Shown piece by piece: positions 16,441-51,515 of a DNA stretch of 64,000 nt. The translations under genes were made by a program, and so were the position numbers. Position 1 is the first letter of the stretch. Each line of letters begins with the position of its first letter. The notes under the pieces were generated by a model. It saw nothing but the letters and a program-made list of their open reading frames with translations. It was not told the DNA's origin and did not search any database. Where the stretch lies: contig CP092863.1 of NCBI GenBank assembly GCA_030710605.1, forward strand, positions 109,229,754 to 109,293,753, written 5' to 3'. This stretch comes from Cordylochernes scorpioides. Its lineage: Eukaryota; Arthropoda; Arachnida; Pseudoscorpiones; Chernetidae.

Positions 16441-16542
16441 CAGTATAACCTCCCTTTAGCGGACACCCCGCTAGCAGGCATCTCTCTACAAAGGACAGTT
16501 TTCATTTGCAAAATTACCATTTTTACTATTTAGCAACTCTCT
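16441..16542. repeat. MITE M1, left part, split by SINE S1
   Basis: From CAGTATAACCTCCCTTTAG; interrupted at AGCAACTCTCT by the SINE and resumed at 16857-16950, ending GTTCTACTGTA. Confidence 0.8.
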
Positions 16543-16856
16543 CAACTCCGCCCTTGCCGGTCCCAAGCCCAGATGAAAAAGGAGGAGGGGGATCAGTAAA
16601 AAGCTCACTAAAAAACCTGGGCTCAGCTGGCCCGGCTGATAGTACCCTGTAAGGGCTCCTAATCTAGGGATACAGGATGAGCAGCGTTTGTACTCCATGT
16701 TAGGAGCCGCTGCACATGACGTCTGTTCCTCAGGTCAGAGGTGGCCATTTATTTTGGAGCTAAGTCAGTGGCCTGCCACTGAGTAGTGCTCCAGTCTTAA
16801 TGACAAAGGCAGACGCATTCTACTTCACCCAGTGTGGAGATAGAAGAAGAAGAAGA
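16543..16856 (+). mobile_element. SINE-like element S1 (copy 1)
   Basis: Flanked by AGCAACTCTCT at 16532-16542 and 16857-16867. The body starts CAACTCCGCCCTTGCCGGTC and ends in (GAA)n. Two further full copies (19443-19846, 51147-51515) also have their own target duplications, so this is an actively retroposed family. No ORF. Confidence 0.88.
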
Positions 16857-19205: not shown

Positions 19206-19442
19206 CTGCATCTTCCATTGTATGAATAGTAACTAAAAGTAGATGGGATATCAAGAAAGAGGAGGGTCTCACCTCCAGCTGAGAAAGGACACTCCTACAA
19301 TAGGCTCCGCCCCTCTCAGAAAATCTTCCATATATAGATGAAAACAAAATGGGAAGGGCCATCAAAAGGGAAGGGGCTTACCTCTAGCTGTCTGAGGGTA
19401 GATACATTCCCATATTGGGTATCCCCTCCCAGAATATTTCCC

Positions 19443-19846
19443 TAACTCCGCCTTTGCCAGTTCCAAGCCTGGATGAAAAAGAAGGAGGGGGAGCAGTTAC
19501 AAGCTCGCTAAAAAACCTGGGCTCAGCTGGCCCGGCTGATAGTACCCTGTAAGGGCTCCAGGGATACAGGATGAAAGTGTCTGTACTCCCATGTTAAGAG
19601 CGGCTGCACATGGCGTCTGTTCCTCATGTTAGAGGCGGCCAGCCATTTCATATTGGAGCTAAATCGGCCTGCTAATGAGTAGTGCTCCCAGTCATAATGA
19701 CAAAGGCAGACACATTCTACTTCACCCCAATCATTATGGATGTCAAATCTTATTTGATGAGCTCTACTCATCCCCAGCAGACACCATCTCAAGCTCTACA
19801 GGCTTGATACCCTGATATGATTGAATGGAGATAAGAAAGAAGAAAA
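19443..19846 (+). mobile_element. SINE-like element S1 (copy 2)
   Basis: Target duplication AATATTTCCC at 19433-19442 and 19847-19856. The most complete copy: it ends with the LINE-like tract TGATGAGCTCTACTCATCCC..GAATGGAGATAAGAAAGAAG, homologous to the 3' end of the LINE at 18143-18614. Confidence 0.88.
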
Positions 19847-34240: not shown

Positions 34241-34318
34241 TTAGTGATAATTTAAAAAAATTGATGGCTAAATTAGGGAAATTATAAGTACCCATACACT
34301 TAAATGTATGTAATTATA

Positions 34319-35312
34319 ATCTTCTCTGTATCCTTCCTATTGTAGTAGTTGTACCGCCGAACTGGTATCACAGGGACCATGCTAATCTTCTCTGTATCCT
34401 TCCTATTGTAGTAGTTGTACCACCGAACTGGTATCACAGGGTCCATGCTAATCTTCTCTGTATCCTTACTATTGTAGCAGTTGTACCGCCGAACTGGTAT
34501 CACAGGGACCATGCTAATCTTCTCTGTATCCTTCCCATTGTAGTAGTTGTACCGCCGAACTGGTATCACAGGGACCATGCTAATCTTCTCTGTATCCTTC
34601 CTATTGTAGTAGTTGTACCACCGAACTGGTATCACAGGGACCATGCTAATCTTCTCTGTATCCTTCCTATTGTAGCAGTTGTACCGCCGAACTGGTATCA
34701 CAGGGACCACGCTAATCTTCTCTGTATCCTTCCTATTGTAGTAGTTGTACCGCCGAACTGGTATCACAGGGACCATGCTAATCTTCTCTGTATCCTTCCT
34801 ATTGTAGCAGTTGTACCGCCGAACGGGTATCACAGGGACCATGCTAATCTTCTCTGTATCCTTCCTATTGTAGCAGTTGTACCGCCGAACTGGTATCACA
34901 GGGACCATGCTAATCTTCTCTGTATCCTTCCCATTGTAGTAGTTGTACCGCCGAACTGGTATCACAGGGACCATGCTAATCTTCTCTGTATCCTTCCTTT
35001 TGTAGTAGTTGTGCCACCGAACTGGTATCACAGGGACCATGCTAATCTTCTCTGTATCCTTCCTATTGTAGCAGTTGTACCGCCGAACTGGTATCACAGG
35101 GACCACGCTAATCTTCTCTGTATCCTTCCTATTGTAGTAGCTATACTGCCGAACTGGTATCACAGGGACCATGCTAATCTTCTCTGTATCCTTTCTATTG
35201 TAGTAGTTGTACCGCCGAACTGGTATCACAGGGGCCATGCTAATCTTCTCTGTATCCTTCCTATTGTAGCAGTTTTACCGCCGAACTGGTATCACAGGGA
35301 CCATGTTAATCT
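34319..35312 (-). repeat. U6 snRNA-derived 66-bp satellite, array 1 (15 copies)
   Basis: Minus-strand unit: GTGATACCAGTTCGGCGGTA, CAACTACTACAATAGGAAGG, ATACAGAGAAGATTAGCATG, GTCCCT. From the TTCGGCGG tract through GATACAGAGAAGATTAGCATGG it follows U6 snRNA (5' hairpin TTCGGCAG, the ACAGAGA box, the AGC triad). As 66 = 3 x 22 and the unit lacks a stop in one frame, a 312-residue ORF results; it is not a gene. Confidence 0.9.
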
Positions 35313-35399
35313 ATCTTGAAATATTCTGTTTAAATAAATCATTAGCTCAATTTAGAATCATAAGACCTTAAAACAGTCATAACGAATCTTTATTACGAG

Positions 35400-36035: not shown

Positions 36036-36041
36036 CAACAC

Positions 36042-36890
36042 ATGGTCTCTCCATATCTCCCTCCTTCAGTACCTTCCTCTACTGAGGGTGGGTCACATGG
36101 TCTCTCCATATCTCCCTCCTTCAGTGCCTTCCTCTACTGAGGACAGGCCACATGGTCTTTATATCTCCCTCCTTCAGTGCCTTCCTCTACTTAGGACAGG
36201 CCACATGGTCTCTCCATATCTCCCTCCTTCAGTGCCTTCCTCTACTGAGGACAGGCCACATGGTCTCTCCATATCTCCCTCCTTCAGTGCCTTCCTCTAC
36301 TGAGGACAGGCCACATGGTTTTATATCTCCCTCCTTTAGTGCCTTCCTCTACTGAGGGTGGGCCACATGGCCTCTCCATATCTCCCTCCTTGAGTGCCTT
36401 CCTCTACTTAGGACAGGCCACATGGTCTCTCCATATCTCCCTCCTTCAGTGCCTTCCTATACTGAGGGTGGGCCACATGGTCTCTCCATATCTCCCTCCT
36501 TCAGTGCCTTCCTCTACTGAGGACAGGCCACATGGTCTCTCCATATCTCCCTCCTTCAGTGCCTTCCTCTACTGAGGACAGGCCACATGGTCTTTATATC
36601 TCCCTCCTTCAGTGCCTTCCTCTACTGAGGGTGGGCCACATGGTCTCTCCATATCTCCCTCCTTTAGTGCCTTCCTCTACTGAGGGTGGGCCACATGGTC
36701 TCTCCATATCTCCCTCCTTCAGTGCTTTCCTCTACTGAGGGTGGGCCACATGGTCTCTCCATATCTCCCTCCTTCAGTGTCTTCCTCTACTGAGGGTGGG
36801 CCACATGGTCTCTCCATATCTCCCTCCTTCAGTGTCTTCCTCTACTGAGGGTGGGCCACATGGTCTCTCCATATCTCCCTCCTTCAGTTT
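36042..36890. repeat. 55-bp minisatellite, about 16 copies
   Basis: Unit: CATGGTCTCTCCATATCTCC, CTCCTTCAGTGCCTTCCTCT, ACTGAGGACAGGCCA. Two unit types (GGACAGGCC or GGTGGGCC) alternate in patches; a few units lack two bases. Overlapping ORFs are artefacts. Confidence 0.93.
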
Positions 36891-46349: not shown

Positions 46350-46470
46350 ACCTAATATTTTGGTCGTTGAGGCACAGCCTGAATTATACAGACCGGAGGC
46401 CAACAGTCCGAAACGCGTAATATAGCTGGCTTTTTAAAAATATATCAAGAAAATGGATTGGCCGAATATT
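46350..46470 (+). repeat. HH2-family element, core decayed
   Basis: GGTCGTTGAGGCACAGCCTG, CAGACCGGAGGCCAACAGTCC, GAAACGCGTAATATAGCTGG. The CUGANGA box is lost; otherwise aligned with 50258-50345. Confidence 0.6.
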
Positions 46471-46482
46471 ATGGACTTATGG

Positions 46483-47490
46483 TACATCTACTACAATAGG
46501 AAGGATACAGAGAAGATTAGCATGGTCCCTGTGATACCAGTTCGGCGGTACAATTACTACAATAGGAACGATACAGAGAAGATTAGCATGGTCGCTGTGA
46601 TACCTGTTGGGCAGTACAACTACTACAATAGGAACGATACAGAAAAGATTAGCATGGTCCCTGTGATACCAGTTCGGCAGTACAACTGCTACAATAGGAA
46701 GGATACAGAGAAGATTAGCATGGTCCCTGTGATACCAGTTCGGCGGTACAACTACTACAATAGGAAAGATACAGAGAATATTAGCGTGGTTCCTGTGATA
46801 CCAGTTCGGCGGTACATCTACTACAATAGGAAGGATACAGAGAAGATTAGCATGGTCCCTGTGATACCAGTTCGGCGGTACAATTACTACAATAGGAACG
46901 ATACAGAGAAGATTAGCATGGTCGCTGTGATACCTGTTCGGCAGTACAACTACTACAATAGGAACGATACAGAAAAGATTAGCATGGTCCCTGTGATACC
47001 AGTTCGGCAGTACAACTGCTACAATAGGAAGGATACAGAGAAGATTAGCATGATCCCTGTGATACCAGTTCGGCGGTACAACTACTACAATAGGAAAGAT
47101 ACAGAGAATATTAGCGTGGTTCCTGTGATACCAGTTCGGCGGTACAACTATTACAATAGGAAGGATACAGAGAAGATTAGCATGGCCACTGTGATACCAG
47201 TTCGGCGGTACAACTACTACAATAGGAAGGATACAGAGAATATTAGCATGGTTCCTGTGATACCAGTTCGGCGGTACAACTATTACAATAGGAAGGATAC
47301 AGAGAAGATTAGCATGGCCACTGTGATACCAGTTCGGCGGTACAACTAGTACAATAGGAAGGATACAGAGAAGATTAGCATGGTTCCTGTGATACCAGTT
47401 CGGCGGTACAACTACTACAATAGGAAGGATACAGAGAAGATTAGCATGGCCCCTGCTCAAGGATGACACACAAAATCGTGAAGAGTTCTA
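46483..47490 (+). repeat. U6 snRNA-derived 66-bp satellite, array 2, ending in near-full-length U6
   Basis: About 15 units as in array 1 but on the plus strand. The last unit continues past the usual junction as TTAGCATGGCCCCTGCTCAA, GGATGACACACAAAATCGTG, AAGAGTTC, i.e. the rest of U6 including its internal stem-loop region. A five-unit (330-base) higher-order repeat is visible: 46483-46812 is nearly repeated at 46813-47142. Both strands hold long ORFs (298 and 330 residues) that are translation artefacts. Confidence 0.93.
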
Positions 47491-47639
47491 TCTACTTTTC
47501 AACCACTAAACTAATTTTTCCTTTAAGATTTTTTTTCATCCGTCTAATTCAGGTAATCTCAAGCAAGTTGAATGGGTAGCGACACAAGGAGGATTAAATG
47601 GATGTTGAAATGATGTAAAGATGAAACGCATACAGATCC

Positions 47640-50475: not shown

Positions 50476-51146
50476 TGTATGTTCACCATTTTATTGTTCT
50501 AGTTGTAACCACAAAGGATTAAAAGGAAGAAAACTTGTAGAAAATACCTCAAAGGAAGGGAAGAAAATTATATAGATCTTTAATGTGAAATTGAAATCGG
50601 AATTTCTCTATTGTTTCCAATATTTACTAAGAACAAAAAAGAAAATTCTAATTAAATAAAAAAATCATTGATGATAATGTGGTCAAATATAATTATTTTC
50701 TCTTCACTGATTTCCCTCAGGAATCAGGTCAACAGAAAGAAATGACTGATGATTTGAATTTGATTTTCATGTAGTCACGTTTTAACCTGATGTAAGTTAG
50801 GACACCTTGTGAAATTAAACTGTTTACATAAGATGATAATTTATGATTTCTCTGAAGTATCGGCTGCTCTTTTTTTCTTTTTTTCTTCTGGGCGCGCGCA
50901 AACAATGGATCGTTTGTCACCTGCTCCACTCCCTCCTTGTCTTGGAATGTTCCCGCTAGGGGTCGCGCTCTACAGTGGGGGCGGATAACATTTCCACGCG
51001 ATTCTGGCCAACCTTACTAAACTTTTGGAAAATAAACTTTTTTCTTCTTTATTAAGGTCAAAACATCAGGTTCCCAGGGATAAGTTTCTTATAAAACATT
51101 TCATCTTCAATATTTCGAAAGACTTTCCACTTCCATTAGAAAAATG

Positions 51147-51515
51147 AACTCCGCCTTTGCTGGTCCCAAGCCCAGATGAAAAAGGAGGAGGGGGAGCAGT
51201 AACAAGCTTGCTAAAAAACATGGGTTCAGCTGGCCTGGCTGATAGTACCCTGTGAGGGCTCCTAATCCAGGGATACAGGATGAGCAGCGTTTGTACTCCA
51301 TGTTAGGAGCGGCTGCACATGGCGTCTGTTCCTCATGTCAGAGGCGGCCATTTCTTTTGGAGCTAAGTCGGCCTGTCACTGAGTAGTGCTCCCAGTCTTA
51401 ATGACAAAGGCAGACGCATTCTACTTCACCCAGTCATAATGGTTGTCAAACAGACACCATCAAGGGTCACAACTTGATATCCTAATATGATTGAGTGGAG
51501 ATAAGAAAGAAGAAG
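51147..51515 (+). mobile_element. SINE-like element S1 (copy 3)
   Basis: Target duplication ATTAGAAAAATG at 51135-51146 and 51516-51527. The body aligns with copies 1 and 2; it ends GAGTGGAGATAAGAAAGAAG. Confidence 0.9.

What the first reader, a model, noticed from the sequence alone, without database searches (positions are those of the whole stretch)
46483..47490. U6 snRNA turned into a tandem satellite
About 15 copies of a 66-base unit equal roughly the first two thirds of U6 (5' stem TTCGGC, ACAGAGA box, AGC triad), and the last unit runs on into the U6 3' part (CTCAAGGATGACAC..AAATCGTGAAG). U6 pseudogenes are usually dispersed single copies; a satellite made from it is unusual. A 5-unit higher-order repeat shows ongoing unequal exchange.
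Basis: partly seen in the sequence, partly recalled or inferred. Interest (0 to 1): 0.85.

Follow-up and report, generated by a model that had tools for sequence, protein, structure and literature searches.

The report
U6 RNA copies expanded into satellites
Copies of the splicing RNA U6 carrying one particular internal duplication appear to have been pasted around this animal genome by a retrotransposon's machinery and then grew in place into tandem repeats of up to about 70 units, linking a basic RNA gene, "jumping" DNA and satellite DNA in a single family.

Summary
The window holds two U6 arrays: 46481-47499 (+), ending in a full-length U6 3' part, and an unreported one at 34317-35312 (-). 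The 66-bp unit is U6 nt 11-68 plus 8 extra bases (TGATACCA). That junction is in 23 of 23 66-bp arrays scanned, so a single origin is likely. It occurs 19,465 times in the 2.6-Gb genome (up to 2 mismatches; reversed control 0).

Of 14 arrays picked without regard to their ends, 10 start at a U6 5' end and 7 run into the U6 3' part. Eight of 18 two-ended arrays have target-site duplications, against 3 of 306 mismatched pairs, one around a 4.9-kb array. Most likely RNA with the duplication was retroposed like known 3'-truncated snRNA pseudogenes, and the copies then expanded in place: two duplicated loci with about 97% identical flanks have 16 and 12 units.

No source gene was found, neither window array has a TSD, and DNA-level spread into U6 pseudogenes remains a rival. 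I rate it a new variant of a known kind. No U6-derived satellite showed in the literature listings.

The parts
46481..47499 (+). U6-derived array 1: about 15 units of 66 bp ending in the U6 3' part
   Evidence: TRF; Rfam U6; BLAST extent
47392..47499 (+). last unit running on into a full-length U6 3' part, through the position of the terminal T run
   Evidence: Rfam U6 1-105/105, 93.4 bits; alignment to this genome's U6
46473..46533 (+). first, degenerate unit of array 1. The 68 nt from GGTACATC on equal (by eye) the start of another array at C1:106.5 Mb
   Evidence: Rfam U6 41.6 bits
46483..47142 (+). 5-unit (330-bp) block and its duplicate inside array 1 (approximate limits)
   Evidence: lag-5 identities 1.0, 1.0, 0.98, 0.98, 1.0
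34317..35312 (-). U6-derived array 2: about 15 units of the same family, both ends cut inside a unit, no U6 3' part
   Evidence: TRF; Rfam U6; sequence

Best explanation
A U6 gene, or a copy still transcribed from a U6-type Pol III promoter, once acquired an internal duplication: nt 11-68 repeated behind an 8-base filler TGATACCA (inferred from the shared junction). RNA from it was used by a LINE-type reverse transcriptase for target-primed reverse transcription. Priming was by a few bases of pairing with an internal 3' stretch of U6, giving mostly 3'-truncated copies without poly(A) and with target-site duplications of about 9-15 bp (structure shown for part of the arrays; enzyme inferred). 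After insertion the repeated part of each copy grew and shrank independently by slippage or unequal exchange (shown at one pair of duplicated loci), producing a locus-specific 66-bp satellite. Array 1 in the window is taken to be such an insertion, old enough that no TSD is recognisable; array 2 has lost both ends. No function for the arrays is indicated.
For: Junction at up to 2 mismatches in 23 of 23 66-bp arrays scanned, from units identical to true U6 to arrays averaging 0.87 identity; 19,465 places genome-wide, reversed control 0. Exact 5'-end-plus-junction 133 places, exact junction-plus-3'-part 134, on 23 of 24 contigs (together). TSDs: score >=9 in 8 of 18 two-ended arrays vs 3 of 306 cross-pairs; without three TC-rich sites, >=11 in 6 of 15 vs 0 of 210. 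Examples: L041 (4.9 kb, 15 bp, 1 mismatch), L067/68 (2.2 kb, perfect 13 bp), L040 (1.4 kb, 12 bp), L062 (12 bp). Nine TSD arrays (the eight plus L065, score 7) share 1-5 nt, mean 2.9, between target and the U6 continuation. Flanks of 15 arrays are unrelated apart from the duplicated pair L048/L049 and one 54-bp dispersed repeat in L043/L050. In-place change: L048 and L049 have 16 and 12 units in about 97% identical flanks; nearest neighbour in the same array for 267 of 363 units, expected 42; only 5 of 210 unit types are shared between loci (L049 left out as duplicate). Recent activity: 25 exact U6-identical unit-plus-junction copies at 14 loci.
Against: Ten of 18 two-ended arrays, including array 1, lack a TSD at score >=9, and seven arrays lacking a U6 end were left out of that test and show no convincing TSD (best score 8 in L039, not abutting the array). 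That multi-unit RNA was mobilised is not shown for long arrays; the test for shared ordered unit pairs gave 0, but its shuffled control also gave 0, so it had no power. The derived U6 variant also exists as 36 single copies.
Confidence: 0.72

Rival explanations
1. The satellite spreads as DNA. Single U6 retropseudogenes, made earlier with TSDs, act as homologous landing sites, and 66-bp arrays enter them by ectopic gene conversion or by integration of extrachromosomal circles.
For: Explains U6 ends plus TSDs around arrays; single U6 copies are abundant (673 exact matches holding both the 5' and 3' part, true genes included); local exchange is active; derived first units could themselves be conversion products.
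Against: Short arrays that are U6-identical or nearly so occur with TSDs (L062, 12 bp; L066, in a TC tract). Derived sequence is strongly tied to arrays (45 derived vs 21 ancestral first units; 36 vs 497 in singles; odds ratio 30; copies, not independent insertions) and begins 13 nt after the U6-specific CGCTT, leaving little room for a crossover. Neither point is decisive.
Confidence: 0.17
2. The repeats are made during reverse transcription: the enzyme repeatedly jumps from the U6 5' region to position 68, or circles on a 66-nt circular U6 RNA, so each array arises anew at insertion.
For: Full-length U6 copies joined head to tail by T runs exist (L052, L057), and positions of full-length U6 copies show runs of 107-125 bp period, so U6 concatemers form repeatedly here; metazoan retrozymes use circular RNA (PMC7229834, listing and passages).
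Against: The identical 8-base filler in old and young arrays needs a template; no ribozyme is found in the window's units; duplicated loci show unit number changing after insertion.
Confidence: 0.07
3. An ordinary local satellite that happened to start from a U6 pseudogene, with no mobility of the array itself.
For: This genome expands many sequences in place: 16% of the window is tandem arrays of 48-172-bp units, the two U6 arrays included. Neither window array has a TSD.
Against: One shared junction at thousands of places, on 23 of 24 contigs; TSDs at U6 ends elsewhere.
Confidence: 0.03

Closest known systems
3'-truncated ('tailless') snRNA processed pseudogenes (Doucet et al. 2015, PMC4476161; abstract and sections 8 and 10 read)
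   Same: U6 RNA, 3' truncation without poly(A), TSDs, a few bases of homology at the 3' junction, LINE machinery proposed
   Different: There single copies; the words tandem, dimer, concatemer and satellite do not occur in its main text. Here an internal duplication expands to about 70 units and a shared junction marks one lineage. Insertion sites here do not look like L1's TTTT/A (by eye, few sites)
SINE-derived satellites (sSats) of squamates (PMC10702118; abstract and one passage read)
   Same: Part of a retroposed element amplified in tandem
   Different: Built from SINEs and said to be likely linked to subtelomeric regions; here built from a spliceosomal RNA, dispersed, part with intact element ends and TSDs
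SINEU, SINEs with snRNA-derived heads (Kojima 2015; not held; known from a passage and citation in PMC8010984)
   Same: snRNA-derived non-autonomous retroposon
   Different: By recalled definition a SINE has a separate tail; here the 3' end is U6 itself and no shared tail was seen
SVA elements (named in a passage of PMC13174262)
   Same: Non-autonomous retrotransposon with an internal variable-number tandem repeat
   Different: Unrelated sequence, composite structure; the rest is recalled
Metazoan retrozymes (PMC7229834, listing and passages)
   Same: Short tandem units, dimers to 62-mers, non-LTR retroelements
   Different: Carry a hammerhead ribozyme in units of 150-450 bp; none found here

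Membership tests
tailless / 3'-truncated snRNA retropseudogene | 3' end truncated inside the snRNA, no poly(A) | tested here: met
   ends at GTTC, GATGACAC, GAAGC etc. in TSD arrays; array 1 instead keeps the full 3' end
tailless / 3'-truncated snRNA retropseudogene | target-site duplications | tested here: met
   8 of 18 two-ended arrays at score >=9 vs 3 of 306 cross-pairs; not found for either window array, nor for the other six arrays lacking a U6 end
tailless / 3'-truncated snRNA retropseudogene | homology between target and RNA at the 3' junction | tested here: met
   1-5 nt in 9 of 9 TSD arrays examined; these were selected for having a TSD, L044 (score 8) was not examined
tailless / 3'-truncated snRNA retropseudogene | single copy of the RNA | tested here: not met
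   2 to 74 units per array
satellite DNA | long head-to-tail arrays with local homogenisation | tested here: met
   within-array identity 0.941 vs 0.911 between; 267 of 363 nearest neighbours in the same array
satellite DNA | heterochromatic blocks | not testable with these tools
   needs FISH or chromatin data; the assembled arrays read are short and dispersed
SINE | separate tail shared with a partner LINE | tested here: not met
   300-bp right flanks of 15 arrays share nothing adjoining the U6 end apart from the duplicated pair L048/L049
SINE | internal Pol III promoter | not tested
   U6 promoters are external (recalled); PSE-like and TATA boxes lie upstream of L002-L006, L053, L055
retrozyme | hammerhead ribozyme in the unit | tested here: not met
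   Rfam finds only U6 in the window's arrays; on 17 other loci lists only U6 and tRNA, but shows 150 of 224 rows
functional U6 gene array | complete U6 with upstream promoter in each unit | tested here: not met
   units lack U6 nt 69 onward and carry no spacer

The most novel reading that the evidence does not exclude
A U6-type Pol III gene with the TGATACCA duplication is still a living source of a non-autonomous retrotransposon whose own internal U6 repeat varies in number, an SVA-like element built only from a spliceosomal RNA, and its long RNAs carry many ACAGAGA boxes that could bind spliceosomal partners.
Probability: 0.25. Interest if true: 0.78.

Novelty: new variant of a known kind. 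Interest (0 to 1): 0.57.

Why it matters
It joins two processes usually seen apart: retroposition of a small nuclear RNA and birth of a satellite. Perhaps hundreds of insertions, part of them with a recognisable TSD and each with its own unit number, would let one measure how tandem arrays start and grow from a known two-unit seed, a question usually studied only in arrays whose origin is lost. It also warns annotators: Rfam calls units as U6 genes (20 U6 hits above threshold in this window, 19 of them partial units), and because 66 is divisible by 3 the arrays read as open frames of 300 or more residues on both strands.

Tried and rejected
Transposon carrier for the arrays: 300-bp flanks of 15 arrays share nothing adjoining the array apart from the duplicated pair L048/L049; L043 and L050 share a 54-bp dispersed repeat, so rejected. 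Living source gene: 14 array starts have TATATA within 18-40 bp, two of them (C3:89213234, C22:32131356) at the exact spacing of true U6 genes, where about 0.6 is expected, and both lie beside TC tracts; undecided. Block mobilisation of mixed arrays: no ordered pair of different units is shared between loci, but the shuffled control is also 0, so this says nothing either way. One suggestive sister pair remains: the array at C1:106507224-106507630 has a first unit identical to array 1's and a last unit one base different over the listed letters (by eye), but segmental duplication is not excluded. Other snRNAs or ribozymes inside the window's other minisatellites: none listed by Rfam at E 0.05. 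Helper reverse transcriptase: one RVT_1 match among the 10 of 36 listed ORFs that were scanned, no link to U6 shown. Organism: not identified; the transposon proteins look arthropod-like (recalled, inference). Literature: searches listed no title or abstract beginning that describes a U6-derived satellite; several listings were cut (for example 12 of 25, 10 of 38), and the library holds open-licence papers only.

Full report
What is there. The window (C1:109229754-109293753 of an unnamed 2.62-Gb genome in 24 contigs) holds two arrays of a 66-bp unit: 46481-47499 on the + strand and 34317-35312 on the - strand, each about 15 units. Rfam recognises the units as U6 positions 1-65 and the last unit of array 1 as a complete U6 (93.4 bits). 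Compared with this genome's own U6 (loci L002-L006, L053, L055, which have PSE-like and TATA boxes at constant spacing), the unit is U6 nt 11-68 followed by TGATACCA. The two parts outside ACAGAGAAG and the 3' tail each beat 2000 of 2000 shuffles. No such promoter boxes lie in the 100 bases before array 1.

Genome-wide family. The junction CCTGTGATACCAGTTCGGCGGTAC occurs 9,260 + 10,205 = 19,465 times at up to 2 mismatches, with 0 for the reversed pattern, so about 1.3 Mb of unit sequence at least. Exact 5' end plus junction occurs 133 times and exact junction plus U6 3' part 134 times (each listing shows 100). In 14 arrays chosen without regard to their ends (12 on C1 that had perfect junctions and came first, including the duplicated pair L048/L049, plus the two in the window), 3 match the exact 5' pattern, which suggests roughly 600 arrays with a very wide error. 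In that set, by reading, 10 begin with a recognisable U6 5' end (slightly changed in L043 and L044) and 7 run into the U6 3' part. In the arrays read, size ranges from 2 to 74 units.

How arrays got where they are. Target-site duplications were sought between the sequence left of the U6 5' end and right of the U6 3' breakpoint. Eight of 18 two-ended arrays score 9 or more against 3 of 306 cross-pairs; leaving out three TC-rich sites, 6 of 15 score 11 or more against 0 of 210. Ten of the 18 were chosen because both ends matched exact patterns. Seven arrays lacking a U6 end (array 2 of the window, L039, L042, L043, L046, L048, L049) were not in the test and gave no convincing TSD. Array 1 of the window was in the test and has none. 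The 3' breakpoints share 1-5 nt with the target in 9 of 9 TSD arrays examined, L065 at score 7 among them. This matches the published picture of 3'-truncated snRNA pseudogenes (PMC4476161, section 8). A single U6 copy, L058, has a 12-bp TSD and 1 nt of overlap.

Growth in place. L048 and L049 lie in duplicated DNA (flanks about 97% identical) but have arrays of 1138 and 869 bp, 16 and 12 units. Across 388 units of 23 arrays the mean identity is 0.941 within and 0.911 between arrays, and 267 of 363 units have their nearest neighbour in the same array against 42 expected (the two full-length U6 tandems L052 and L057 left out). Array 1 shows one 5-unit and one 2-unit block duplication. In-place expansion is not special to U6 here: 11 arrays, the two U6 arrays included, fill 16% of the window, and its 55-bp array is also found in L053 on C3.

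Lineage. Two sequence types carry the junction: one like true U6 (ancestral) and one with AACTACTACAATAGG (derived). At up to 1 mismatch, array first units are 45 derived and 21 ancestral, single U6 copies 36 and 497 (odds ratio 30). These are copies, not independent insertions: the singles include true genes and tandem runs. Twenty-five exact U6-identical units with the junction sit at 14 loci, so the duplicated form was mobile recently as well as long ago.

Judgement. Shown: U6 origin, one junction, dispersal, TSDs at part of the arrays, in-place change of unit number at one locus pair. Inferred: RNA intermediate for the duplicated form, LINE enzyme, a U6-type source gene. The main rival is DNA-level invasion of existing U6 pseudogenes. 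Each process taken alone is known (snRNA retropseudogenes, SINE-derived satellites); a dispersed satellite family seeded by a duplicated U6 was not seen in the listings of the searches made, so I file it as a new variant of a known kind.

Noticed in passing
window 16539-16593, 19439-19493, 51142-51196 (+): Three type-P1 twister ribozyme matches below Rfam's threshold (40-41 bits, E about 1e-5) at or near the 5' limit of a dispersed repeat; homology between the window copies starts at about 16544, with related copies in L048 and L049.
   Followed up: partly
window as a whole: About 16% of the window is tandem arrays of 48-172-bp units (U6 arrays included); the 55-bp array at 36039-36888 recurs in L053 (C3, 41 copies) and the 76-bp unit at 49237-49542 matches tandem arrays of about 100-bp period in L048-L050.
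   Followed up: partly
G000 C15:21039513-21040440, C1:7578456-7578977, C4:29985871-29986410, C1:87407365-87407770: Positions of full-length U6 copies show tandem runs with 107-125-bp periods, different from the 66-bp family (letters not read); L052 and L057 show U6 copies joined by T runs.
   Followed up: no
G000 contig C24 (180 Mb, out of size order): None of 66 listed array starts (45, 21) lies on C24; about 4.5 expected, P about 0.009, seen after the fact. It may be a sex chromosome (inference).
   Followed up: no
window 34288-35319, 46438-47487: Long open frames on both strands (303-343 aa) caused by the 66-bp period being divisible by 3; likely to be mis-annotated as proteins.
   Followed up: yes
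L052, L054, L057, L066: U6 copies inserted in TC-repeat tracts, ending at GTTC joined to TCTCTC, as expected if priming uses pairing with the U6 3' stretch.
   Followed up: partly
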